The notes beneath the pieces were generated by a model. That model was given only the letters and a program-made list of their open reading frames with translations. It searched no databases and was not told the DNA's origin. From an uncultured Clostridia bacterium (lineage in GTDB: Bacteria > Bacillota > Clostridia > Oscillospirales > Acutalibacteraceae): a DNA stretch of 11,709 bases. Below are positions 2 to 9,944 of the stretch, piece after piece (the stretch's first letter is position 1; each line of letters opens with the position of its first letter). The translations under genes and the position numbers were made by a program. The stretch covers positions 1 to 11,709 of the forward strand of contig CALGCE010000093.1 in the NCBI GenBank assembly GCA_937884625.1, given 5' to 3'.

Positions 2-2968
2 TATATAGAGCAAACGGTACGTTCAGTACTTGCACAAACGTATAAAAATTTGCAGGTAATAGTCGTAGATGACGGTTCAACGGACAGCACTTTTGAAATT
101 TTGAAGTCAATAGACGATGACCGCCTTGAAGTTTATCAAAATGACAAGAACCGCCATATTTCTTATACCTGCAACCGTGCAATTGGGTTATCCAAAGGCG
201 AGTATATAGCACATATTGATGCAGACGATTTATGGGTAAGTGAAAAAATAGAAAAACAGGTAGAATTTCTTGAAAACAATCCGCAGTATGTAGCCTGCTT
301 TACGCAGGTAGATATAATAGATGAAAATGGAAATCCTGCAAATGAGAAATACAGCAATTATAAAGATATTTATAATCTTGAAAATATGCCGCAGGAAAAA
401 ATGTTGCGGTATTTTTTAGATAATCCAAATCATTTATGTCATTGCAGTGTGCTTGTAAAAGCAGAAACATTAAAACAAGTAGGAAATCACGATGTTTCTA
501 TGTGTTATTTGCACGATTTTGATTTGTGGCTTCGCATACTGCTTACAGGTTCTGTTTATATTATGGAAAGTCCGCTTACAATTGTACGTGTACATTCGGA
601 CAGTAACAGTTCAATGAATGAAAAAAAGTGGATTGCCCACGATACCGAATATGCACGCATTATTGACAAGGTAATCGGTTTATGTCCCGATGAATTATTT
701 TTAAAGGCTTTTGAGGATTGCTTGAAACTGAAAGGTGAGCATACACATTCAGAAACAGAACTTGAAAAGGCTTTTATTTTGATTGACAGAATTTTTCCTC
801 TCAAAAGCAATCCTGTTTTAGCGATTGCAAAGTTTTCCGAATTGTTGAACGATAAGGCTTATTTAGACATTGCAGAAAAGAAGTTTGGGTTTACACCGAA
901 AGACCTTTATGAACTTCAAAAAAGGCAGTCGCTTTATAATGAGCAGAAGCAAAAGCGAGAAACGGATATTTTAAAAAGCAGTTTCAACGAGAAAATCGGC
1001 ACTCTTGATGAGAAAATCTGTCTGCTTAATTCACAGATTGACGAATACAAAAAAGCAATTTCTAACGCAAATGACCGCATAGCGACTGTTGAGGCCCAAA
1101 AGCAGGAACTATTAAGCACTTTTTCTTGGCGAGTTACTGCACCCATGAGAAAAATTACGGGTAAAATAAAGCCTATTGTTTTTAAAAACCGTACTCTTAC
1201 ACGAATTTGCAGAGGGACAAAAATGTTGTTATTAAGCGGTCCTAAGGCTGTGTATAAACGTTTTAAGACAAGAACGGTAGGTAGATACGTTGGTAAAGCG
1301 GTAATAAAAGACGATATTTCAAAGGAAAGACGTAAGGCTGAAAGCAATTATGAATTTAAAAGGGACGTTAAGTTCAGCATTTTGGTACCTCTTTACAATA
1401 CTCCCGAAGACTTATTAAGAGAAATGATAGCGTCGGTAGAGTGCCAGACTTATTCGAATTGGGAACTTTGTTTGGCGGACGGCAGTACCGATGAATTCTC
1501 TTACGTTGGCGAATACTGTAAACAATCAGCCAAAAGGGACAGCCGAATTAAGTATAAAAAACTTGAAGAAAATAAAGGCATATCGGAGAATACAAATGTC
1601 TGTATAGAAATGTCTTCGGGCGATTATATTGCCCTGTTTGACCACGATGACCTTTTACATTCAAGTGCATTATTTGAGTATGCAAAGGTAATTTGCGAAG
1701 AAAACGCCGATTTTATTTACTGCGATGAGGACAAGTTTGAAAAGGTTGGCGGAAGATTATTTGATCCGCACTTCAAGCCGGACTTTGCACCCGATAATTT
1801 AAGGGCAAATAACTATATTTGTCATTTTACGGTGTTCAGCAGAGATTTGCTCGAAAAAGTAGGCGGTTTCAGAAAGGAATTTGACGGAAGCCAAGACCAC
1901 GATTTGGTTTTACGGCTTACCGAACAGGCAAAACATATTGTTCATATTCCAAAAGTGCTTTATCATTGGAGGGTAAGCAGTGTTTCTGTCGCATCTGACC
2001 CGTATGCCAAGCCGTACACAATTACGGCAGGAATAAATGCGGTAAGCGAACATCTTGAAAGGGTAGGACTTAAAGGTACTGTTGAAAGTTCTGCCGTTCA
2101 CCCGAATATTTACAGAATCAGATATGAGATAACGGGAAATCCGCTCGTTTCCATAATCATTCCGAACTACAATCACATAGAAGACCTTTCACGCTGTATT
2201 GATTCCATCACCAAAAAATCCACTTATAAAAATTATGAAATAATAATAGTTGAAAATAACAGTAATGAGGAAACTTTTGAATACTACAAGACTCTTGATA
2301 AGTATTCAAATATAAAGGTAGTAGTTTACAAACCTGAGCCCAATGAGTTTAATTACTCGGCTATTAATAATTACGGCTTTAAATTTACAAGCGGTGAGCA
2401 CATCATTCTTCTTAACAATGATATAGAGGTTATCTCCCCCGATTGGATACAGGAAATGCTTATGTACTCACAAAGAAATGATGTCGGTGCAGTTGGTGCT
2501 ATGCTTTATTATCCTGATAATACTATCCAGCATGCGGGTGTGGTTTTGGGCGTTCTTACACTTGCCGGACATTCATTTAAACATCAACCGAGAGGCACTG
2601 CAGGATATTTCGGCAGGGCTGCTTATCAGCAGAATTTAACGGCGGTAACAGCCGCTTGTATGATGATGCGAAGAGACGTGTTTGAGCAGGTAAACGGTCT
2701 TGACGAAACATTTAAGGTTGCATTTAACGATATAGACCTTTGTATGCGTATCAGAAAAGCAGGATATCTGATAACTTTTACGCCGTATGCAGAACTTTAT
2801 CATTATGAATCCGTTTCAAGAGGAGATGATACTTCTCCTGAAAAACGCAAACGTTTTGTAAGCGAGGTCCAAAGATTTCAAAGCCGTTGGAAAAAAGAAC
2901 TTGAAGCAGGAGACCCGTATTATAATCCTAATCTTACTCTTGATGCGGAAAATTTTGATATAAAATAA
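2..2968 (+). CDS. Multidomain family 2 glycosyltransferase, 5'-partial
   Basis: The reading frame is open from base 2, so the true start lies left of the window; 988 codons are visible. The codons before the TTG at 50 still encode a typical GT2 N-terminal strand-helix (EQTVRSVLAQTYKNLQVIVV), so that TTG is not the start. Three GT-A/GT2 modules are visible. Module 1 has DDGSTD (68-85), DADD (218-229) and an HDFDLW segment near 512-529. Module 2 (about 1369-2000) has ADGSTDE (from 1475), DHDD (1640-1651) and QDHD (from 1892). Module 3 (about 2130-2870) has NNSNEE (from 2255), NND (2414-2422) and NDIDLCMRI near 2726. Between modules 1 and 2 is a charged, probably coiled-coil stretch (about 910-1125) followed by an SWRVTAPMR motif common in large surface-polysaccharide transferases. 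No signal peptide or membrane segment is seen in the visible part. Family knowledge suggests assembly of a cell-wall or exopolysaccharide repeat from nucleotide sugars at the cytoplasmic face of the membrane. The donor and linkage cannot be read from the sequence. Confidence 0.93.
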   Translation, partial: YIEQTVRSVLAQTYKNLQVIVVDDGSTDSTFEILKSIDDDRLEVYQNDKNRHISYTCNRAIGLSKGEYIAHIDADDLWVSEKIEKQVEFLENNPQYVACFTQVDIIDENGNPANEKYSNYKDIYNLENMPQEKMLRYFLDNPNHLCHCSVLVKAETLKQVGNHDVSMCYLHDFDLWLRILLTGSVYIMESPLTIVRVHSDSNSSMNEKKWIAHDTEYARIIDKVIGLCPDELFLKAFEDCLKLKGEHTHSETELEKAFILIDRIFPLKSNPVLAIAKFSELLNDKAYLDIAEKKFGFTPKDLYELQKRQSLYNEQKQKRETDILKSSFNEKIGTLDEKICLLNSQIDEYKKAISNANDRIATVEAQKQELLSTFSWRVTAPMRKITGKIKPIVFKNRTLTRICRGTKMLLLSGPKAVYKRFKTRTVGRYVGKAVIKDDISKERRKAESNYEFKRDVKFSILVPLYNTPEDLLREMIASVECQTYSNWELCLADGSTDEFSYVGEYCKQSAKRDSRIKYKKLEENKGISENTNVCIEMSSGDYIALFDHDDLLHSSALFEYAKVICEENADFIYCDEDKFEKVGGRLFDPHFKPDFAPDNLRANNYICHFTVFSRDLLEKVGGFRKEFDGSQDHDLVLRLTEQAKHIVHIPKVLYHWRVSSVSVASDPYAKPYTITAGINAVSEHLERVGLKGTVESSAVHPNIYRIRYEITGNPLVSIIIPNYNHIEDLSRCIDSITKKSTYKNYEIIIVENNSNEETFEYYKTLDKYSNIKVVVYKPEPNEFNYSAINNYGFKFTSGEHIILLNNDIEVISPDWIQEMLMYSQRNDVGAVGAMLYYPDNTIQHAGVVLGVLTLAGHSFKHQPRGTAGYFGRAAYQQNLTAVTAACMMMRRDVFEQVNGLDETFKVAFNDIDLCMRIRKAGYLITFTPYAELYHYESVSRGDDTSPEKRKRFVSEVQRFQSRWKKELEAGDPYYNPNLTLDAENFDIK

Positions 2969-3064: not shown

Positions 3065-3313
3065 ATGAGTGTTTGGGAAATTATTTTGGGAATAGCCGTC
3101 ATATTGGTATCTTTAATAATTATCGCCGTAATTCTTTTTCAACAGGGTCACCGTTCGGGAATAAACGGTGCTATTTCAGGCGGTGCGGATACGTTCCTTT
3201 CTAAAAACAAGGCCCGCACGTTTGATGCTACACTTGCACGCATAACCAAATATGTTGCAATCCTGTTCTTTGTGTTGGCACTTGTTGCAAACGTAATTGC
3301 TTTAAGAAAGTAA
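3065..3313 (+). CDS. secG: Preprotein translocase subunit SecG
   Basis: SecG is the small accessory subunit of the SecYEG protein-conducting channel and assists SecA-driven export across the cytoplasmic membrane. The 82-residue protein has the usual length and layout. It has an N-terminal hydrophobic helix (about residues 4-25, ending in ILFQQG), a polar Gly/Ser loop with the family-typical SGGADTFL segment (about 38-46), and a second hydrophobic helix (about 63-79). The start is fixed by GGAGG at 3053-3057, seven bases before the ATG. It stands alone between its own promoter and a strong terminator. In many Bacillota rnr and smpB follow secG; here a hydrogenase operon follows instead. Confidence 0.95.
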   Translation: MSVWEIILGIAVILVSLIIIAVILFQQGHRSGINGAISGGADTFLSKNKARTFDATLARITKYVAILFFVLALVANVIALRK

Positions 3314-3322
3314 AAAGATGTT

Positions 3323-3353
3323 AAAAGTCCCTCGAAAAGCGAGGGACTTTTTT
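3323..3353 (+). terminator. Rho-independent terminator after secG
   Basis: GTCCCTCG (3327-3334) pairs perfectly with CGAGGGAC (3340-3347) around a five-base loop. The stem is extended by AAAA (3323-3326) against the first four bases of a six-T run (3348-3353). It begins ten bases after the secG stop and separates secG from the hydrogenase operon. Confidence 0.95.
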
Positions 3354-3529: not shown

Positions 3530-4027
3530 ATGAAGAAAAAAATCGGTAAACTTCCGTTTAAAGGCACTGCCGAACAGGAAGCACAACTTTTGAAGGTCAT
3601 TGACGAGTATAAGTATGACAAAACCAACCTTATGGTAGTAATGCAAAAAGCACAGGATATTTACGGCTATCTGCCGATTGAAGTACAGGAAATGATTGCA
3701 GAGGGTATGGACGTACCGCTTGAAAAGGTTTACGGCGTTTCTACTTTCTATGCTCAATTTTCACTCTCCCCAAAGGGTAAATATAACATTTCCGTTTGTT
3801 TGGGTACTGCCTGCTACGTTAAGGGCTCAGGACCGATATTTGATAAGTTAAGCGAGAAACTCGGCATTGGTGCCGATGAGTGTACACCTGACGGTAAGTT
3901 TTCACTTACTGCCTGCCGTTGCATAGGTGCATGCGGTCTTGCACCTGTACTTACAGTTAACGACGACGTTTACGGAAGACTTACTGTTGATGATGTTGAG
4001 GGCATACTCGAAAAGTATAAAGACTGA
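3530..4027 (+). CDS. hydC: NuoE-like [2Fe-2S] subunit of bifurcating hydrogenase (HydC)
   Basis: This is the thioredoxin-fold [2Fe-2S] electron-transfer subunit of soluble NADH-linked hydrogenases (HydC/HndA, homologous to complex I NuoE). It passes electrons to or from the NAD-binding flavoprotein HydB. The 165-residue length is typical of NuoE. An N-terminal helical bundle includes the family-typical AQDIYGYLP (41-49) and VYGVSTFYAQF (67-77). The cluster ligands are C90 and C95 (CLGTAC) and C131 and C135 (CIGAC), with an extra C129. The start is supported by AAGGAGG at 3515-3521, eight bases upstream of the ATG. It is the first gene of the operon, 40 bases ahead of the next gene. It is separated from hydB and hydA by seven genes, unlike Thermotoga, where, as I recall, hydC, hydB and hydA adjoin. 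Assignment as HydC rather than another NuoE paralogue rests on operon context. Confidence 0.9.
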   Translation: MKKKIGKLPFKGTAEQEAQLLKVIDEYKYDKTNLMVVMQKAQDIYGYLPIEVQEMIAEGMDVPLEKVYGVSTFYAQFSLSPKGKYNISVCLGTACYVKGSGPIFDKLSEKLGIGADECTPDGKFSLTACRCIGACGLAPVLTVNDDVYGRLTVDDVEGILEKYKD

Positions 4028-4067: not shown

Positions 4068-4424
4068 ATGAAAATCTGTACAATGAAAGATTTGCTCGAT
4101 GCCGAAGTTCTTTGCTGTGAGGAGAACTTGGGACGTCACGTATACTCCGCTTGCGGTTGTGACCTTATGAGTGACGTTCTTGCCTACGTTAAGGACCAAG
4201 CGGTATTGCTTACAGGTCTTGTTAATCCGCAGGTTATAAGAACTGCGGAAATGATGGATATGGTTTGTATCGTTTTTGTGCGTTCTAAAATGCCTACCGA
4301 AGAAATGTTAAATCTTGCGAGAGACAGCGGTATAGTTATTATGCAGACTAAAAAAAGGCTTTACGAGGCTTGCGGAATACTGTATTCCAACGGTCTTGTA
4401 AGGAATAAGACAAAAGATGAGTGA
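4068..4424 (+). CDS. DRTGG-domain-like small protein, hydrogenase operon
   Basis: This 118-residue soluble protein resembles the small DRTGG-domain proteins found in clostridial hydrogenase operons. DRTGG domains also occur in phosphotransacetylase and in CBS-domain pyrophosphatases, where they are linked to nucleotide or small-ligand regulation. No ligand is known for this type. The visible pattern is an N-terminal KDLLDAEVLCC helix, then SACGCDLMSDVLAYV, a hydrophobic strand (AVLLTGLVN), and a C-terminal half with alternating strands (VCIVFVRSK and GIVIMQTKK). The literal DRTGG signature is not present, so the domain call rests on overall pattern and context. It is Cys-rich (C4, C16, C17, C29, C31, C67, C102). 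AAGGGA at 4053-4058 is its ribosome binding site. Its last eight bases overlap the next gene, which implies translational coupling. Confidence 0.72.
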   Translation: MKICTMKDLLDAEVLCCEENLGRHVYSACGCDLMSDVLAYVKDQAVLLTGLVNPQVIRTAEMMDMVCIVFVRSKMPTEEMLNLARDSGIVIMQTKKRLYEACGILYSNGLVRNKTKDE

Positions 4425-4842
4425 AGAGTTAGTTTTTCATTTTGACGTCGACGGGGAAGATTTTACTTCTGCCGGTCAGGCTTCGGTACAAATCAAGAAA
4501 ATTTTAAGAAGATTGGGATTGTCTCCCGAAATAATACGTCGAGTTTCCATTGCGATGTACGAGGGAGAAATTAATATGGTAATCCACGCCGGTGGCGGCG
4601 TTGCCGACGTGCGTGTTTTTGAGGACTATATAGAGTTAGTCCTTAAAGATAACGGACCCGGAATATCCGATATAAATAAGGCTATGCAGGAGGGATATTC
4701 TACTGCAACCGATACTATTCGTTCACTCGGTTTCGGTGCGGGTATGGGATTACCGAATATGAAGAGGTACAGCGATACTATGGAGATAAATTCCGTAGTG
4801 GGCGAGGGTACCGAAATAACAATGCGAGTAAATATTCGGTAG
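4417..4842 (+). CDS. RsbW/SpoIIAB-like GHKL ATP-binding protein
   Basis: This 141-residue protein is a stand-alone GHKL (HATPase) domain of the anti-sigma-factor serine kinase type. The N box is EGEIN...H (E49, N53, H57), with the Glu-x3-Asn spacing of SpoIIAB and RsbW. The G1 box is DNGPGI (78-83), the G2 glycine loop is GFGAGMGL (105-112) and the G3 motif is GEGTEI (129-134). All ATP-binding motifs look intact, so it should bind ATP and may phosphorylate a partner protein. No STAS-domain antagonist and no sigma factor is present in the window, so a classical partner-switch is not demonstrated. Its ATG overlaps the end of the preceding gene by eight bases, and nine bases separate it from the HydS gene. 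Proteins of this type recur beside HydS in Clostridia. The substrate is unknown. Confidence 0.85.
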   Translation: MSEELVFHFDVDGEDFTSAGQASVQIKKILRRLGLSPEIIRRVSIAMYEGEINMVIHAGGGVADVRVFEDYIELVLKDNGPGISDINKAMQEGYSTATDTIRSLGFGAGMGLPNMKRYSDTMEINSVVGEGTEITMRVNIR

Positions 4843-4851
4843 TGTGATAAT

Positions 4852-6117
4852 ATGGATAAATACGAACATTCCGTGTTGCTTGACCGTGATAAATGCACCG
4901 GCTGTACTACCTGTTTACGCCACTGTCCGACAGAGGCAATAAGGATTAAGGACGGTCACGCCGTCATAAACGATGAAAGATGTATTGACTGCGGTGAATG
5001 TATCAGGGTGTGTGGGCATAAGGCAAAAAGAGCAATATGCAGTAAACTTGAAAGTATGGAGCGGTTTAGGTATAAAATTGCACTTCCTGCACCTACACTT
5101 TACGGTCAGTTCGATAATTTAGAGGACGTTGATATTGTCCTTGACGGACTGCTTAAAATCGGATTTGACGATGTATTTGAGGTGTCGAAAGCAGCAGAAC
5201 TTGTGTCTGCGTATACAAGACTATACCTTAAAACCGACGGTGTTAAAAAACCTGCCATCAGTTCGGCTTGTCCTGCTGTGTTAAGACTTATAAGTCTGCG
5301 TTTTCCGTCGCTTAGCGATAACGTAATACATATGTTACCGCCGTCTGAGGTGGCAGCGTCGCTTGCAAGGGAAAAGGCACTTAAAGAACACCCCGAACTT
5401 AAAGAAACAGATATAGGAGTTTGCTTTATTTCGCCGTGTCCTGCAAAGGTAAGTTACGTTAAAAACGGTTTTGCAAATTATAAAAGTAAAATAGACGAAG
5501 TAGTTTCAATCAGTGATATATACTTTATGCTTATAAGTAAAATGTCGCAGGAAGACGAAATTAAGACGATTTGCGAATCGGGAATGATTGGCATAGGTTG
5601 GGCGACTTCGGGTGGCGAAGCAACGGCTATTTTCAATGAAAAGTACCTTGCGGCTGACGGTATTGAGAACGTTAATAAAGTTCTTGACCAGATAGAAAAC
5701 GGTAACATACCGCAACTTGAATTCATTGAACTCAACGCCTGTACGGGCGGTTGCGTAGGCGGTGTTATGACCATGCAAAACCCGTTTATCGCAAAGGCAA
5801 GGTTACGAGGGTTAAGACGGGACCTGCCTGTATCTCAAAATTTTTTGGGTAAATATGATTTATATATACCTGATAATTATTTGTTTGATAAGTTGCCCGA
5901 ATACAGTCCGATATCAAGGCTCAGTGATAATATGGCGGAGTCAATGCGTATGATGGCAGACATTCAGAAATTAAAGGATATGCTGCCGAATACCGACTGT
6001 GGCTCCTGCGGTGCACCTACGTGCAGGGCTTTTGCCGAAGATGTGGTTAAGGGCGAAGCGAAGGCTGAAAACTGCATTTTTATGTCTTTAAAGGAGAACG
6101 GTAAAAATGACGGTTAA
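4852..6117 (+). CDS. hydS: HydS-like putative sensory [FeFe]-hydrogenase
   Basis: This 421-residue protein has three parts. The first is an N-terminal two-[4Fe-4S] ferredoxin domain (C15, C18, C21, C25; C44, C47, C50, C54). The second is a hydrogenase large-subunit-like domain (about 72-330). The third is a C-terminal single-cluster Fe-S domain with C383, C386, C391 and C408. The H-cluster motifs are altered. L1 is SSACPAV (137-143) instead of TSCCPxW, so the proton-transfer Cys is Ala (A139) while the following ligand Cys (C140) stays. L2 is SPCPAKVSY (194-202), keeping C196 and K199 but losing the final Glu. L3 keeps C297 and C301 (NACTGGCVGG) but lacks the usual Met before the first Cys. 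All four cubane ligands are thus present. Cys-to-Ala at the proton-transfer site is, as I recall, the hallmark of HydS from Thermotoga maritima (TM1421), a putative sensory enzyme with low activity encoded beside hydABC. There is no PAS domain. No strong ribosome binding site is visible, and nine bases separate it from the upstream ATPase gene. Confidence 0.87.
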   Translation: MDKYEHSVLLDRDKCTGCTTCLRHCPTEAIRIKDGHAVINDERCIDCGECIRVCGHKAKRAICSKLESMERFRYKIALPAPTLYGQFDNLEDVDIVLDGLLKIGFDDVFEVSKAAELVSAYTRLYLKTDGVKKPAISSACPAVLRLISLRFPSLSDNVIHMLPPSEVAASLAREKALKEHPELKETDIGVCFISPCPAKVSYVKNGFANYKSKIDEVVSISDIYFMLISKMSQEDEIKTICESGMIGIGWATSGGEATAIFNEKYLAADGIENVNKVLDQIENGNIPQLEFIELNACTGGCVGGVMTMQNPFIAKARLRGLRRDLPVSQNFLGKYDLYIPDNYLFDKLPEYSPISRLSDNMAESMRMMADIQKLKDMLPNTDCGSCGAPTCRAFAEDVVKGEAKAENCIFMSLKENGKNDG

Positions 6118-6436
6118 GGAACTTTGTGAAACCTGCGATTTTGATATTTGCTGTATGCCTTTTCCCGAAAGGGAGGTAAAAGGTGCTTATATAGGCGACC
6201 TGCTCAGTTGGGTAATGGGCAGAGCAAATGAAGATAACGCTTGGATTACCATTATGTCAAACGTAAATGTGGTTGCGGTAGCAACACTTGCGGATACATC
6301 GTGTGTAATACTTGCAGAGGGCGTGAAGTTAGAGCAGGATATAATAGATGTTGCAAATGAAAAAGGCGTAAATATTCTTTATTCCAGTCTGCCGTCATTT
6401 GAAACGGCGGTTAAAATATCCGGTAAGGTATTATGA
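6107..6436 (+). CDS. Second DRTGG-domain protein
   Basis: This 109-residue protein has the DRTGG-type core GAYIGDLLSWVMGRA (26-40), then NAWITIMSNVNVVAVATLAD with alternating strands and a final VNILYSSLPSFETA segment. This layout matches the small DRTGG proteins annotated in clostridial hydrogenase operons. Enzymatic motifs are absent, so a ligand-sensing or scaffold role is the likeliest reading. The N-terminus carries a cysteine group, C7-x2-C10-x4-C15-C16, that is not part of the usual fold. Its ribosome binding site AAGGAG (6091-6096) and its ATG lie inside the end of the HydS gene, giving an 11-base overlap. It ends in a four-base ATGA overlap with the PHP gene. The two DRTGG genes lie on either side of the ATPase-HydS pair. 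Confidence 0.82.
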   Translation: MTVKELCETCDFDICCMPFPEREVKGAYIGDLLSWVMGRANEDNAWITIMSNVNVVAVATLADTSCVILAEGVKLEQDIIDVANEKGVNILYSSLPSFETAVKISGKVL

Positions 6437-7158
6437 ATAAGTATTATTATGATTTGCATATACATTCGTGCCTGTCACCTTGTGCAGATAATGACAATAC
6501 ACCTAATAATATAGCAGGTATGGCTTCCCTTTGCGGACTTAATATTGTCGCTCTTACAGACCATAACACCTGCAAAAACTGTCCTGCTTTTTTTGTTGCA
6601 GCAAGGCGTTACGGTATAATTCCGATAGCAGGTATGGAACTTACCACCGCAGAGGATATCCACGTTATATGCTTGTTTTCCACCCTCCAATATGCACTTT
6701 CCTTTGATGAGGAAATAAATTCAAGGCGAATACTTATAAAAAACCGTACCGATATATTCGGCGACCAACTTATTTTAGACTGTGAAGATAACGTAATAGG
6801 AATTGATGAAAATTTGTTGTCGAATGCTACTGACGTTTCTTTGGAAGAAGTGCCGAAAATTGTCGGTAAATACGGTGGAATATGCTATCCTGCACATATA
6901 GATAGGCAATCTAACGGCATAATAGAAGTTTTGGGAACTTTTCCCGAAACGCCGATATTTAGTGCAGTAGAGTTTAACAACAGTGTAAAAATTGCCGAGT
7001 ACACACAAAAATACGGTCTTGAAAATAAAAAAATTGTTGTAAGTTCAGATGCACATTATCTTGAAAATATAAGGGATAAAGAAAACTTTTTTGAACTTTG
7101 CGATAAGCCTTATAGCAGTGCTTTTGTGAGTAAGAAACTAATAGATTATTTAAGGTAA
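6433..7158 (+). CDS. PHP-domain metal-dependent phosphoesterase
   Basis: PHP domains are trinuclear-metal phosphoesterases; relatives hydrolyse 3',5'-bisphosphonucleotides, short oligonucleotides or histidinol phosphate. In this 241-residue protein the metal-ligand motifs are in the expected order: HIH (H9, H11), D19, DH (D43, H44), E69 in GMELTT, H77, H155 in PAHID, and D206 with H208 in SSDAH. It is therefore probably catalytically competent. Cysteines sit right next to the metal site: C13 and C17 follow the HIH motif, and C47 and C50 follow the DH motif. It is cytosolic with no signal peptide. The ATG overlaps the previous stop by four bases and the next gene starts five bases after this one. 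In this operon it may hydrolyse a phosphorylated or nucleotide signal made by its neighbours, but the substrate cannot be inferred. Confidence 0.88.
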   Translation: MNKYYYDLHIHSCLSPCADNDNTPNNIAGMASLCGLNIVALTDHNTCKNCPAFFVAARRYGIIPIAGMELTTAEDIHVICLFSTLQYALSFDEEINSRRILIKNRTDIFGDQLILDCEDNVIGIDENLLSNATDVSLEEVPKIVGKYGGICYPAHIDRQSNGIIEVLGTFPETPIFSAVEFNNSVKIAEYTQKYGLENKKIVVSSDAHYLENIRDKENFFELCDKPYSSAFVSKKLIDYLR

Positions 7159-7162
7159 AAAA

Positions 7163-7705
7163 ATGAAAGAACTGTCACTTAATATTCTTGATATATCCGA
7201 AAATTCGGTAAAGGCGGGTGCCTCGATTGTAGAAATACTGATAAATGAGGATAACGATATACTTACGCTTGTCATTCGTGATGACGGTTGCGGTATGACG
7301 GAAGATGTGTTAAAGTCGGTAACCAATCCTTTTTATACTACAAGGACTACAAGAAATGTAGGGCTCGGTATTCCGCTTTTAAAACTTTCAGCAGAACAGA
7401 CAGACGGAAGTTTTGAAATCACATCAAGAACCGACGACAATCACGGTACTACTGTAAAGGCGGTCTTTAATAAAAATCATATGGATTTTACACCGCTTGG
7501 CGATACAGTATCGACGATTACCACTTTAATACAGGGACACCCCGATACAAACTTTTTGTTTGTTCATACCAAAGGAGAAAATGAAGTATCACTCGATACC
7601 CGTCAAATGCGTGAAATGTTAGGGGAAGTTCCGTTAAACAGTTATGAGGTTATTAAATGGGTCGAGGAATATTTGTGTGAGCAGTATTCCGAGAACTTTA
7701 AATAA
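7163..7705 (+). CDS. GHKL (histidine-kinase-type) ATP-binding protein
   Basis: This 180-residue protein is made of a histidine-kinase-like ATPase domain (about 1-105) plus a C-terminal extension (about 106-180). The N box is LDISENSVKAGA (9-20, with N14). The G1 box is DDGCGM (40-45). An F-box-like PFYTT (56-60) precedes the G2 motif GLGIPLL (67-73), and a G3-like HGTT follows. It has no dimerisation/phospho-acceptor His domain, no sensor domain and no membrane segment. It is thus either an ATPase or a kinase acting on another protein. It differs clearly from the RsbW-like protein upstream, so the two are not a recent duplication. The ribosome binding site is a weak AAGG (7152-7155) seven bases before the ATG, which suits translational coupling to the PHP gene. 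Confidence 0.83.
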   Translation: MKELSLNILDISENSVKAGASIVEILINEDNDILTLVIRDDGCGMTEDVLKSVTNPFYTTRTTRNVGLGIPLLKLSAEQTDGSFEITSRTDDNHGTTVKAVFNKNHMDFTPLGDTVSTITTLIQGHPDTNFLFVHTKGENEVSLDTRQMREMLGEVPLNSYEVIKWVEEYLCEQYSENFK

Positions 7706-7736: not shown

Positions 7737-8108
7737 ATGAAATCATTGGCTGAATTGCAGGCAATCAAAGACAAAATGAAGGATAAGGTAGTTCTTCGTG
7801 AGGGTTCGGGCGACGTTCGTATAGTAGTGGGAATGGCTACTTGCGGAATAGCGGCAGGTGCACGTCCGGTTCTCAATACTTTCGTTGAGGAGGTTAGCAA
7901 CAACGGTCTATCAAACAGAGTAACCGTATCTCAAACAGGCTGTATCGGCATTTGTCAGTTCGAACCTGTTGTTGAGGTATACGAAGCAGGTAAGGAAAAG
8001 GTTACCTATGTTAAGATGACAGCCGAAAAGGCAAAAGAGGTTGTTGAAAAACATATTAAGGGTGGCAAAGTCGTATCAGAATACACGATAGCCAACCGAA
8101 AAGATTAA
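7737..8108 (+). CDS. Thioredoxin-fold [2Fe-2S]-type protein (HndB/TM1420-like)
   Basis: This 123-residue protein is related to the C-terminal half of NuoE and to HndB of NADP-reducing hydrogenases. Typical segments are VGMATCGIAAGARPV (31-45), QTGCIGICQFEP (66-77) and KVTYVKMTAEKAKEVVEKHI towards the end. Only three cysteines exist in the whole protein (C36, C69, C73); the residue equivalent to the second cysteine of the usual C-x4-C pair is G41. The cluster may therefore use an unusual fourth ligand. It probably transfers electrons to or from the HydB flavoprotein, whose own N-terminal domain is a complete four-Cys version of the same fold. AAAGGGA (7722-7728) is a good ribosome binding site. 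It lies 31 bases after the GHKL gene and 15 bases before hydB. Confidence 0.88.
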   Translation: MKSLAELQAIKDKMKDKVVLREGSGDVRIVVGMATCGIAAGARPVLNTFVEEVSNNGLSNRVTVSQTGCIGICQFEPVVEVYEAGKEKVTYVKMTAEKAKEVVEKHIKGGKVVSEYTIANRKD

Positions 8109-8123: not shown

Positions 8124-9944
8124 ATGATTCGTTCACAAGTACTTATTTGTGGCGGTACAGGTTGTACTTCATCAGGCAGTAAGTCTATTCAAAAAGCCTT
8201 CGAAGAAAATATTAAGGCTAACGGACTTAGCGATGAAATCAAACTTGTCCAAACCGGATGCTTCGGTCTTTGTGCATTGGGACCGGTCGTAATTATTTAT
8301 CCGGACGGAACATTTTACAGCAGAGTTACGGCAGATGACGTAAAGGAAATAGTTGAGGAGCATCTGCTTAAAGGACGTGTAGTTGAGCGTCTTGTTTATA
8401 ACGATACGGGTGTTAATACCGAGGAGATTATAGGAAATGTATCTCTCGGCGATACGGCATTCTATAAATCACAAAACAGAGTAGTTCTTCGTAACTGCGG
8501 TGTAATAGACCCTGAAAATATCGACGAATACATAGCGATGGACGGTTATCAGGCACTCGGTAAGGTACTTACCGAAATGACGCCGGAAGACGTTATAAAG
8601 TGTATTTCCGATTCAGGACTTCGTGGTCGTGGTGGCGGTGGCTTCCCGACAGGCTTTAAATGGTCGCTTTGTGCACCTAATAAGGCACCGCAAAAGTACG
8701 TCGTATGTAATGCCGACGAGGGCGACCCCGGTGCATTTATGGACCGTTCCGTTTTAGAGGGCGACCCGCACTGCGTTATCGAGGCTATGGCAATAGCAGG
8801 TTATGCAATAGGTGCTACAAAGGGTTACGTTTATGTACGTGCAGAGTATCCTATCGCAGTAGCACGTTTGCAGATTGCTATTAATCAGGCTCGTGAGTAC
8901 GGTCTTTTGGGTAAAGATATTTTCGGCTCTGGATTTGATTTTGACCTTTATATCCGTCTTGGTGCAGGTGCATTTGTTTGCGGTGAGGAAACCGCACTTA
9001 TGACCGCTATCGAGGGTAACAGAGGTGAACCACGTCCACGTCCGCCTTATCCTGCCGTTAAGGGACTTTACAACTCACCGACGGTTGAAAACAACGTTGA
9101 AACCTTTGCAAATATTCCGCAGATTATCCTTAAAGGTGCCGATTGGTTTGCATCTATGGGAACCGAGAAGTCAAAGGGTACAAAGGTATTTGCACTCGGC
9201 GGTAAAATAAAGCATACAGGCCTTGTTGAAATTCCTATGGGTACTACACTCCGTCATATTATTGAGGATATCGGCGGCGGTATTCCGAACGGGAAAAAGT
9301 TCAAAGCCGCTCAAACAGGCGGTCCGTCGGGCGGATGTATACCGGCATCCCTTATTGATACCGAAGTTGATTACGATAACCTTACGGCTATCGGTTGTAT
9401 GATGGGCTCGGGCGGTCTTATAGTTATGGACGAAGACAACTGTATGGTCGATATGGCTAAATTCTTCCTTGAATTTACGGTTGACGAGTCCTGCGGTAAG
9501 TGTACACCCTGCCGTGTAGGTACAAAAAGACTTCTTGAAATGCTCGATAAAATTACCAAAGGCAAGGGCACACTTGAAGATATTGATAAACTTGAAGAAC
9601 TTTGTATGTACATTAAGCAGAACTCTTTGTGCGGTCTCGGACAGACTGCTCCAAACCCCGTTCTTGCAACACTCAAATTTTTCAGAGAAGAATATGTTGC
9701 CCACGTTGTTGATAAGAAGTGTCCGGCAGGTGTTTGTAAAGATTTGCTTACCTTTACAATTGATAAAGATAAGTGTATCGGTTGCGGTATGTGTGCTAAA
9801 AACTGTCCTGCATCTACAATTCACAAGACAGATTACGTTGCAGAAGGTCATAAACTTCCGTCTTACGAAATTGACCCTGACAAGTGCGTTAAATGTGGCG
9901 TATGTATGAGCAACTGTAAGTTTAAGGCTATCAGTAAGATTTAA
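8124..9944 (+). CDS. hydB: NADH-oxidising flavoprotein subunit of hydrogenase (HydB)
   Basis: HydB is the NuoF-like subunit that binds NAD(H) and FMN and is regarded as the site of flavin chemistry in electron-bifurcating hydrogenases. The 606 residues contain four regions in order. An N-terminal thioredoxin-fold [2Fe-2S] domain has C9, C14, C46 and C50. The NuoF core has the glycine-rich RGRGGGGFPTG (167-177), NADEGDPGAF (196-205) and a GAGAFVCGEETAL segment. The NuoF-type [4Fe-4S] site has C457, C460, C463 and C503. A C-terminal two-[4Fe-4S] ferredoxin domain has C551, C554, C557, C561 and C588, C591, C594, C598. The length and layout match HydB/HndC proteins. GGGAGG (8111-8116) is a strong ribosome binding site seven bases from the ATG. 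It adjoins hydA with a 19-base gap and needs the distant hydC product for the full complex. Confidence 0.96.
   Translation: MIRSQVLICGGTGCTSSGSKSIQKAFEENIKANGLSDEIKLVQTGCFGLCALGPVVIIYPDGTFYSRVTADDVKEIVEEHLLKGRVVERLVYNDTGVNTEEIIGNVSLGDTAFYKSQNRVVLRNCGVIDPENIDEYIAMDGYQALGKVLTEMTPEDVIKCISDSGLRGRGGGGFPTGFKWSLCAPNKAPQKYVVCNADEGDPGAFMDRSVLEGDPHCVIEAMAIAGYAIGATKGYVYVRAEYPIAVARLQIAINQAREYGLLGKDIFGSGFDFDLYIRLGAGAFVCGEETALMTAIEGNRGEPRPRPPYPAVKGLYNSPTVENNVETFANIPQIILKGADWFASMGTEKSKGTKVFALGGKIKHTGLVEIPMGTTLRHIIEDIGGGIPNGKKFKAAQTGGPSGGCIPASLIDTEVDYDNLTAIGCMMGSGGLIVMDEDNCMVDMAKFFLEFTVDESCGKCTPCRVGTKRLLEMLDKITKGKGTLEDIDKLEELCMYIKQNSLCGLGQTAPNPVLATLKFFREEYVAHVVDKKCPAGVCKDLLTFTIDKDKCIGCGMCAKNCPASTIHKTDYVAEGHKLPSYEIDPDKCVKCGVCMSNCKFKAISKI

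What the first reader, a model, noticed from the sequence alone, without database searches (positions are those of the whole stretch)
4068..7705. Possible hydrogen- or redox-sensing signalling module inside a bifurcating hydrogenase operon
Between hydC and the electron-transfer genes lie DRTGG protein, RsbW-like ATPase, HydS-like hydrogenase, second DRTGG protein, PHP phosphoesterase and second GHKL ATPase. Most junctions overlap or are under 10 bases, so they are probably made together. The set has a plausible input (HydS), two ATP-using proteins, two ligand-binding-type domains and a phosphoesterase, but no DNA-binding output domain. Similar gene sets flank hydABC in other anaerobes, so the association is likely functional. 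The circuit (what is phosphorylated, what the PHP enzyme cleaves) is not known to me. Inference: it adjusts hydrogenase activity or expression to H2 or redox state through a protein phosphate or a nucleotide signal.
Basis: partly seen in the sequence, partly recalled or inferred. Interest (0 to 1): 0.72.

Follow-up and report, generated by a model that had tools for sequence, protein, structure and literature searches.

The report
Hydrogen-sensor signalling module in hydrogenase operon
Six small genes inside a gut bacterium's hydrogenase operon form a fixed, widely conserved set built around a hydrogen-sensing type of enzyme and two ATP-using proteins, which probably tells the cell how full its hydrogen and electron pool is; the parts list is now clear but how the signal is passed on is not.

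Summary
The six genes at 4068-7705 are real and lie inside a hydC...hydBA operon. HydS carries the sequence marks of putatively sensory group D [FeFe] hydrogenases. Over 299 genomes of one phylum HydS, DRTGG, PHP and GHKL-2 proteins mostly come together (all four in 107, none in 166, not kinship-corrected). Natural fusions pair DRT1-RsbW (8 loci), PHP-GHKL (6), HydS-DRT2 (2) and RsbW-HydS (1). Four genomes hold the complete set split over two loci. Three genomes lack HydS but carry an RsbW with a CBS pair, so the input looks exchangeable. The neighbouring enzyme varies: A6 hydrogenase, selenocysteine formate dehydrogenase, or Rnf. 102 of 213 genomes with an A6 hydrogenase lack HydS, so the set is not needed to build it. 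Rex boxes and rex genes near many copies suggest separate transcriptional control; protein-level action of the module is inference. That sensory HydS sits with a kinase near bifurcating hydrogenases is in print; the six-part set, fusions, CBS variant and formate-dehydrogenase/Rnf neighbours I did not find in my searches. Phosphorylation target and PHP substrate remain unknown.

The parts
3323..3351 (+). intrinsic terminator-like hairpin before hydC; the operon probably starts after it
   Evidence: 12-pair stem followed by a T run; the scan finds 9 such sites against 7.5 expected, so weak by itself
3530..4027 (+). hydC (NuoE-like 2Fe-2S subunit)
   Evidence: PF01257 172.2 bits
4068..4424 (+). 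DRT1, DRTGG-like protein; fused to RsbW in 8 other loci; Ser35 and Thr49 conserved at 100% (rounded) of 193 relatives
   Evidence: (below cut-off)
4417..4842 (+). SpoIIAB/RsbW-like GHKL ATPase with complete N, G1 and G2 boxes (E49, N53, D78, G80, G82, G105-G111)
   Evidence: predicted fold of a fused relative matches SpoIIAB 1til, E 3e-11
4852..6117 (+). HydS, group D (M2e) [FeFe] hydrogenase by sequence marks: two N-terminal 4Fe-4S motifs, H-cluster Cys140/196/297/301, Ala139 in place of the group A proton-transfer Cys, C-terminal Cx2Cx4Cx16C (383/386/391/408)
   Evidence: marks of group D from passages of PMC8163306 and PMC10407848
6107..6436 (+). DRT2, second DRTGG protein; fused to HydS in 2 other loci; Asp31, Ser34, Thr48, Asn54 conserved at 100% (rounded) of 199 relatives
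   Evidence: (31.1 bits, above cut-off)
6433..7158 (+). PHP phosphoesterase with its metal-site residues; fused to GHKL in 6 other loci; nearest solved folds EndoQ, then other PHP proteins including RNase AM and CV1693
7163..7705 (+). GHKL-2, HATPase of histidine-kinase/MutL type without a phospho-acceptor domain; same kind of protein as A. woodii HydE (sequences not compared)
   Evidence: PMC3315566 passage
7737..8108 (+). thioredoxin-like 2Fe-2S protein
   Evidence: PF01257 28.0 bits against 24.8
8124..9944 (+). hydB (NuoF-like, FMN/NADH subunit)
   Evidence: PF01512 151 bits
9964..11709 (+). hydA, group A6 NADH-dependent [FeFe] hydrogenase, open at the window end
   Evidence: NF040763 863.5 bits, cut-off 765

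Best explanation
The six genes are one signalling module that reports the H2/ferredoxin redox state and, by inference, tunes electron-bifurcating or ferredoxin:NAD oxidoreductases at the protein level. Proposed steps. (1) HydS is reduced by H2 or ferredoxin; its H-cluster can pass electrons to accessory clusters (reported for TamHydS variants, PMC10407848 passage), and the state reaches the C-terminal 4Fe-4S domain (inferred). (2) HydS contacts DRT2 (supported by fusion). (3) The state is handed to the RsbW-like ATPase held by DRT1 (fusions DRT1-RsbW and RsbW-HydS), which acts as a kinase or an ATP-gated partner switch; the near-invariant serines of the DRTGG proteins are the first candidates for phosphorylation (inferred). 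(4) The PHP-GHKL pair resets or relays the state (pairing supported by fusion, chemistry inferred). (5) The output is the activity or complex state of HydABC, formate dehydrogenase-HydBC or Rnf, while Rex controls transcription in many of these operons (Rex seen as sites and genes; protein-level output inferred).
For: Co-occurrence: all four of HydS, DRT, PHP, GHKL in 107 of 299 genomes, none in 166; odds ratios 290-612. Fusions: DRT1=RsbW 8 loci, PHP=GHKL 6, HydS=DRT2 2, RsbW=HydS 1 (one of each checked by Pfam). Split but complete in four genomes (G176, G202, G146, G276: RsbW-HydS at L099, L107, L123, L122; DRT1-DRT2-PHP-GHKL at L207, L204, L205, L206). ATP and metal residues kept. The neighbouring enzyme varies while the module stays. 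CBS pair on RsbW where HydS is missing (Pfam for L208 only). Rex boxes: 27 of 75 hydC-first upstream regions with at most 2 mismatches, 1.0 expected from shuffles; a Rex-like gene in 29 loci, overlapping the start of DRT1 by 4 bases in 8 and 46-272 bases upstream of it in 6.
Against: No experiment here shows H2 response, kinase activity or a target. The window's own upstream region has only 4-mismatch Rex-like sites, no better than shuffles. 20 of 73 HydS loci of 15 kb or more show no HydA, Fdh or Rnf by my cut-offs, and HydS stands alone beside unrelated genes in L172. Covariation between the six proteins was uninformative. Co-occurrence counts are not corrected for kinship, and several fused loci are close relatives. 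A LuxR-type DNA-binding protein follows hydB in L144 (Pfam) and L186 (by reading), so a DNA-level output exists as an option.
Confidence: 0.42

Rival explanations
1. Same sensor module, but the output is transcriptional through an unlinked regulator: the RsbW-like protein acts as an anti-sigma or partner-switch factor, or the module feeds Rex or another DNA-binding protein.
For: The RsbW-like part is nearest to SpoIIAB in family and fold; rex overlaps DRT1 in 8 loci; a LuxR-type HTH protein follows hydB in L144. The published view of such sensors is mostly transcriptional (PMC3492117, PMC6776011 passages).
Against: NCBIfam anti-sigma F score 57.5 against cut-off 135; I noticed no STAS or sigma partner among the neighbour clusters printed (the 28 commonest, named by reading); Rex senses NADH on its own (recalled).
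Confidence: 0.27
2. The module is an ATP-driven assembly, repair or quality-control factor for the bifurcating complexes.
For: GHKL-2 resembles MutL, topoisomerase VI-B, GRP94 and histidine kinases by fold; the A. [quoted passage not shown]
Against: 102 of 213 genomes with an A6 hydrogenase lack HydS; HydS keeps its H-cluster cysteines and group D acidic residues in nearly all members, which an assembly factor would not need; the neighbouring catalytic subunits are of unrelated kinds.
Confidence: 0.15
3. The module makes or removes a small nucleotide signal; the PHP enzyme hydrolyses it and the DRTGG and CBS domains bind it.
For: PHP is closest in fold to nucleic-acid or nucleotide hydrolases EndoQ, RNase AM and CV1693 among others; DRT1 and DRT2 weakly match the DRTGG part of manganese-dependent inorganic diphosphatase models (16.0 and 18.9 bits against 335), enzymes that also carry CBS domains (recalled); CBS pair on RsbW in a HydS-less variant.
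Against: No nucleotide synthase was recognised in the module; a shared fold shows no substrate.
Confidence: 0.12

Closest known systems
Group D (M2e) [FeFe] hydrogenase TamHydS of Thermoanaerobacter mathranii
   Different: The paper names an AraC regulator and one ATPase as neighbours and asks how the signal is passed on; the passages I saw name no DRTGG, PHP or second ATPase. TamHydS itself was not fetched or aligned
C. thermocellum Cthe_0335 to Cthe_0342 hyd region
   Same: M2e hydrogenase Cthe_0335 and bifurcating Cthe_0340-0342, with Cthe_0339 annotated histidine kinase (PMC3561251, PMC3990059, passages)
   Different: Genes 0336-0337 are not named in the passages; I did not fetch this locus
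A. woodii five-gene hyd operon (hydA1-hydE)
   Different: No HydS, DRTGG or PHP in the operon as the passage describes it; sequences not compared here
Group C HydS with PAS domain (T. maritima; HfsB; R. albus HydS)
   Same: H-cluster domain plus accessory clusters, encoded near other hydrogenases, linked to kinases or phosphatases in print
   Different: No PAS, no HisKA in the window's HydS; a group C-type kinase is a separate protein in L128
SpoIIAB/RsbW anti-sigma kinases
   Same: Fold and ATP-site residues
   Different: Below the NCBIfam cut-offs; a DRTGG protein is its fused or adjacent partner, in the place where a STAS antagonist would be expected (recalled)

Membership tests
Group D (M2e) [FeFe] hydrogenase | four H-cluster cysteines | tested here: met
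   Cys140 203, Cys196 203, Cys297 202, Cys301 202 of the residues in those columns of 203 aligned sequences
Group D (M2e) [FeFe] hydrogenase | group A proton-transfer Cys (C299 CpI) absent | tested here: met
   column 139 is A 149, S 47, T 5, N 1, H 1; no Cys
Group D (M2e) [FeFe] hydrogenase | C-terminal Cx2Cx4Cx16C and two N-terminal 4Fe-4S motifs | tested here: met
   Cys383/386/391/408 in all 202 with residues there; Cys15/18/21/25 and 44/47/50/54 at 100% rounded
Group D (M2e) [FeFe] hydrogenase | group D proton path (TamHydS E252, E289, D265, S249) | tested here: met
   matched by spacing only, no direct alignment to TamHydS: E256 197 of 203, E293 202 of 202, D269 188, S253 S 130 and T 19 (paper passages)
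Group D (M2e) [FeFe] hydrogenase | no PAS domain | tested here: met
   Pfam scan of the window's HydS lists none
Group D (M2e) [FeFe] hydrogenase | H2 conversion or H2 sensing | not testable with these tools
   needs protein work
SpoIIAB/RsbW anti-sigma kinase | N, G1, G2 ATP-site boxes | tested here: met
   E49, N53, D78, G80, G82, T96, G105, G107, G109, G111 at 100% rounded of 204 members plus window
SpoIIAB/RsbW anti-sigma kinase | curated model score | tested here: not met
   spIIAB 57.5 against 135; RsbW model 24.5 against 145
SpoIIAB/RsbW anti-sigma kinase | STAS antagonist or sigma factor partner nearby | tested here: inconclusive
   none noticed by reading among the 28 commonest neighbour clusters; rarer neighbours not scanned
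Two-component histidine kinase | phospho-acceptor (HisKA) domain in the same protein, receiver protein encoded beside it | tested here: not met
   GHKL-2 has only HATPase matches; none of the ten window proteins scanned is a receiver
DRTGG (PF07085) | Pfam cut-off 25.2 bits | tested here: met
   DRT2 31.1; DRT1 of the window 21.8, below it; L115 DRT1-RsbW fusion 38.0
PHP phosphoesterase (PF02811) | metal-site residues and curated score | tested here: met
   H9, H11, H44, E69, H77, H155, D206, H208 at 100% rounded of 193 members; 42.8 bits against 26.4
Electron-bifurcating group A6 hydrogenase | NF040763 cut-off 765 | tested here: met
   863.5 bits

The most novel reading that the evidence does not exclude
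A new kind of signalling circuit in which DRTGG proteins take the place of STAS proteins as partners or substrates of an RsbW-type kinase, with an exchangeable input (H2 through HydS, or adenylates through a CBS pair) and a PHP-GHKL reset pair, gating electron bifurcation itself (HydABC, formate dehydrogenase-HydBC, Rnf) at the protein level instead of gene expression.
Probability: 0.22. Interest if true: 0.87.

Novelty: new variant of a known kind. Interest (0 to 1): 0.6.

Why it matters
[quoted passage not shown] The module names five partner proteins, which of them are joined in nature, and which enzymes they travel with, so the question can be put to the bench protein by protein. It bears on control of H2, formate and ferredoxin flow in gut and rumen Clostridia and in biofuel strains.

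Tried and rejected
Covariation between the six proteins (137 loci with all six, effective number 87) was dominated by a clique of columns (RsbW 18 and 130, DRT2 6 and 103, HydS 131, PHP 78, 137 and 146) that looks like an alignment or kinship artefact; weaker HydS 394/404 to DRT2 29/87 pairs are noted but not used.

Fusion alignments A7 and A8 were misaligned and dropped; A9 and A10 replaced them. No coordinates of the models can be read here, so no interface was measured; the DRT1-RsbW linker (116-129) has pLDDT under 50 and pTM is 0.70, so the mutual placing of the two halves is not claimed.

'Truncated HydA' of about 355 residues (15 loci: 14 of 15 kb or more, and L160) was first read as a broken hydrogenase; it is the N-terminal part of a formate dehydrogenase: in the 14 loci printed it ends at an in-frame TGA after ...DHCARL and is followed by H(A/S)xTVAGLA, and L190 has molybdopterin domains (Pfam; the other 14 not scanned). 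A 312-residue protein in the same score band beside it (L158, L159, L163, L168, L178) was not identified.

Rex site in the window: rejected as evidence (4 mismatches; 70% of 200 shuffles do as well). Rfam: no match at gathering thresholds. tRNA: none. A phylogeny-corrected test of co-occurrence was not run.

In the rows shown by Foldseek and VIA-align I noticed no phosphotyrosine-type PHP phosphatase; this excludes nothing.

Papers (passages only, all of them): PMC9431212 had no 'group D', 'sensory' or 'histidine kinase'; PMC13104023 had no 'operon', 'kinase' or 'PHP'; PMC11837493, PMC10102598, PMC10472528, PMC3478167 gave context only. Searches without a useful hit on the module's make-up: DRTGG + hydrogenase (one unrelated paper), PHP domain + hydrogenase + histidine kinase + bifurcating (none), HydABC + RsbW + hydrogenase (none), and (listings only for the papers not named here). 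Calusinska 2010 was not seen, only cited by others.

Full report
WHAT IS THERE. The window (11709 bases) holds, after a terminator-like hairpin at 3323-3351, ten plus-strand genes: hydC, DRT1, an RsbW-like ATPase, HydS, DRT2, PHP, a second GHKL ATPase, a thioredoxin-like 2Fe-2S protein, hydB and hydA (families). HydA passes the cut-off of the group A6 NADH-dependent hydrogenase model (863.5 against 765 bits). DRT1 is the weakest assignment: 21.8 bits against the DRTGG cut-off of 25.2.

CLOSE RELATIVES. A scan of genome contigs with HydS gave 141 confirmed relatives, of which the best 80 were kept: Clostridia and some Coriobacteriales by record title, HydS identity 70-94%. In all 80 the same order is kept as far as the stretch reaches; the six module genes are all seen in 74 of 80 and all ten genes in 54, and the missing ones lie beyond the ends of the stretches. 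Junctions seen: RsbW-HydS 80, HydS-DRT2 80, DRT1-RsbW 79, DRT2-PHP 79, hydC-DRT1 77, PHP-GHKL 75, GHKL-fdx 72, fdx-hydB 71, hydB-hydA 55. Within the class of one Coriobacteriales genome, 1 of 149 genomes, the centre itself, has HydS at E 1e-60, so those copies were probably gained as a block by horizontal transfer (inference).

WIDE SURVEY. 299 genomes drawn evenly from the phylum of G007 were searched with HydS, DRT1, PHP and GHKL-2 at E 1e-30, 1e-10, 1e-25 and 1e-20. Of 134 genomes with a HydS match I kept 120 whose best match exceeds 180 bits; 14 with 133.8 bits or less (other hydrogenase groups) were dropped. HydS and DRT together in 116, HydS alone 4, DRT alone 9, neither 170; HydS and PHP 112, 8, 4, 175; HydS and GHKL 114, 6, 11, 168. 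All four in 107, none in 166. The Fisher p-values (5e-61 and below) ignore kinship. The DRT search also catches DRT2. RsbW and DRT2 were not searched in this way.

EXCEPTIONS THAT TEACH. Twenty loci around exceptions and extra copies were fetched (read). (a) In G176, G202, G146 and G276 RsbW-HydS (L099, L107, L123, L122) lies apart from DRT1-DRT2-PHP-GHKL (L207, L204, L205, L206): the set is complete though unlinked, so co-occurrence there is not operon hitch-hiking. (b) L208, L209 and L211 (genomes G170, G110, G137, none among the 120) have no HydS; their RsbW carries an N-terminal extension of about 165 residues that is a CBS pair (Pfam for L208, 107.8 bits; the others by reading). L189 and L221 have both CBS-RsbW and HydS; L212, a second locus of G137, has DRT1 and CBS-RsbW beside Rnf-like genes. 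(c) L215 and L217 keep DRT1-RsbW-DRT2-GHKL only. (d) L140, L148, L151, L167 and L169 carry only HydS and DRT2 of the module, before a hydrogenase operon; their genomes (G186, G236, G309, G038, G211) also hold a fuller copy (L141, L174, L166, L135, L175). (e) In L213 HydS is in pieces while the neighbours stand.

FUSIONS. DRT1=RsbW in 8 loci (L098, L100, L103, L109, L115, L116, L121, L171), PHP=GHKL in 6 (L158, L159, L160, L163, L168, L178), HydS=DRT2 in 2 (L118, L128), RsbW=HydS in 1 (L191) (L115, L158, L128, L191 confirmed by Pfam). Several are close relatives of each other, so events are fewer than loci. They mark the pairs most likely to touch. Only fusions between the ten operon models were sought; a 768-residue protein of L118 with weak HydS and GHKL matches is not counted (its like in L128 is a group C-type kinase).

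NEIGHBOURING ENZYMES. Among loci L111-L223 (113), 86 are 15 kb or longer and 73 of these hold HydS above 250 bits (the thirty 4-kb loci L081-L110 were left out). All six module genes are found in 56 of 73, five in 9, four in 1, two in 6, one in 1. Neighbours: HydA only 28, HydA and Rnf 9, selenocysteine formate dehydrogenase only 12, HydA and formate dehydrogenase 1, Rnf only 3, none of these 20 (Rnf by a RnfD-like cluster named by reading or by a weak hydB-model match of RnfC length, not by Pfam). Of 15 loci with the formate dehydrogenase start, 9 have it on the module's strand (for example 8 bases after hydB in L183) and 6 in a diverging operon. In L185 DRT1-RsbW-HydS-DRT2-PHP is followed by RnfC, D, G, E, A, B-like genes with no hydABC in the stretch (named by reading); that genome's GHKL-2 lies elsewhere (G197). 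Some of the 20 carry hydC-GHKL-hydB without hydA (L144, L186) or an NfnB-like protein (L153).

IS IT NEEDED FOR THE HYDROGENASE? 213 of 299 genomes match the A6 model at E 1e-100 (204 over its cut-off). 111 have both A6 and HydS, 102 A6 without HydS, 9 HydS without A6, 77 neither. In 20 genomes of the close set the H-cluster domain family finds from 2 to 5 members; 11 of 20 have exactly two. So the module is an optional companion, not a maturation need.

CHEMISTRY KEPT. Among members above score thresholds (percentages rounded to 100): RsbW E49, N53, D78, G80, G82, T96 and most of the GFGAGMGLPN lid; GHKL-2 D10, N14, D40, G42, G44, G67, G69; PHP H9, H11, D43, H44, E69, H77, H155, D206, H208 and also Cys17 and E180; DRT1 S35, T49 and G109; DRT2 D31, S34, T48, N54; HydS sixteen cluster cysteines. 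HydS column 139, the place of the group A proton-transfer Cys, is never Cys in 203; E256 is E in 197 of 203 and E293 in 202 of 202, at the spacing of the pair E252/E289 of TamHydS described as exclusive to group D (PMC10407848 passages). The Ser35-Asp36 pair of DRT1 is not kept in the solved DRTGG protein AF1212 (2ioj) as HMMER aligns it, in a weak match (E 0.41).

TRANSCRIPTION. In 75 loci whose operon starts with hydC, 27 upstream regions hold a Rex-type palindrome with at most 2 mismatches (1.0 expected from dinucleotide shuffles) and 47 with at most 3 (7.95 expected); in 94 DRT1-first loci 3 with at most 2 (0.7 expected) and 20 with at most 3 (5.4 expected); in 15 RsbW-first loci 2 with at most 3 (0.7 expected) (the consensus is recalled). 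Many of the 75 are close relatives. The window's own region has no significant site. A cluster of 29 loci carries a Rex-like gene (PF06971 with PF02629 in L161; the others not scanned): it overlaps the start of DRT1 by 4 bases in 8 loci and lies 46-272 bases upstream in 6; in the other 15 it is downstream. Since Rex reads NADH/NAD (recalled), the HydS module would add H2/ferredoxin information at another level; this is inference.

WHAT IS KNOWN. PMC3561251 (passages) states that sensory hydrogenases are usually encoded upstream of trimeric bifurcating ones and are often separated by a histidine/serine kinase, suggesting a regulatory relationship, citing earlier work, and lists M2e enzymes such as Cthe_0335. 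PMC3492117 (passages) mentions upstream phosphatases, kinases and/or PAS sensors. PMC8163306 (passages) proposes a sensory role for group D and asks how the signal is passed. PMC3315566 (passages) says A. [quoted passage not shown] The sensor idea is therefore not new. I did not find the six-part composition, the fusions, the CBS variant or the formate dehydrogenase and Rnf neighbours described (searches; open-licence PMC papers only).

MECHANISM. Shown: the set, its pairings by fusion, its conserved active-site residues, its exchange of input and of neighbour. Inferred: HydS reports redox to DRT2; DRT1 holds the RsbW-like ATPase; phosphorylation of a DRTGG serine or a partner switch carries the signal; PHP-GHKL resets it; the output is on the enzyme complexes. 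I hold the protein-level reading at 0.42, a transcriptional output at 0.27, assembly at 0.15 and a nucleotide signal at 0.12; they overlap in part.

VERDICT. Observation confirmed, interpretation partly supported and widened. New variant of a known kind; interest 0.6.

Noticed in passing
L043 and L054, about 8717-16899: Two operons keep the same module and hydB but have a shorter, diverged hydC (159 residues) and a diverged hydA (806 and 819 bits; first seen as about 700 against roughly 900-1235 in other loci with a full hydA): subunits look swapped around a constant regulatory set.
   Followed up: partly
L128:14043-16379, similar ORFs in L118 and L171: A separate group C-type hydrogenase-PAS-histidine kinase (HisKA and HATPase by Pfam in L128; the others by model score only) is encoded close to the group D module, so two sensor-type hydrogenases sit side by side.
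   Followed up: partly
L144:15210-15569 and L186:14957-15280: A small LuxR/GerE-type DNA-binding protein follows hydB where hydA is missing (Pfam for L144, reading for L186).
   Followed up: partly
window PHP, Cys17 (6481-6483): Cys17 in the motif HSCLSPC is conserved at 100% (rounded) of 193 PHP relatives, close to the first metal-site histidines; a metal ligand or a redox switch, unexplained.
   Followed up: no
L208, L209, L211, L212, L189, L221: RsbW-like protein with an N-terminal CBS pair, with or without HydS: an energy-charge input is possible.
   Followed up: partly
window 2-2968: Large ORF open at the 5' end that reads like a two-domain family 2 glycosyltransferase; not scanned.
   Followed up: no
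window 3065-3313: 82-residue membrane protein that reads like SecG, ending before the terminator-like hairpin; not scanned.
   Followed up: no
L057, L066, L067, L069-L077, L080: The operon in rumen Coriobacteriales (by record title), while 148 of 149 genomes of that class have no HydS at E 1e-60: likely transfer of the whole block.
   Followed up: partly
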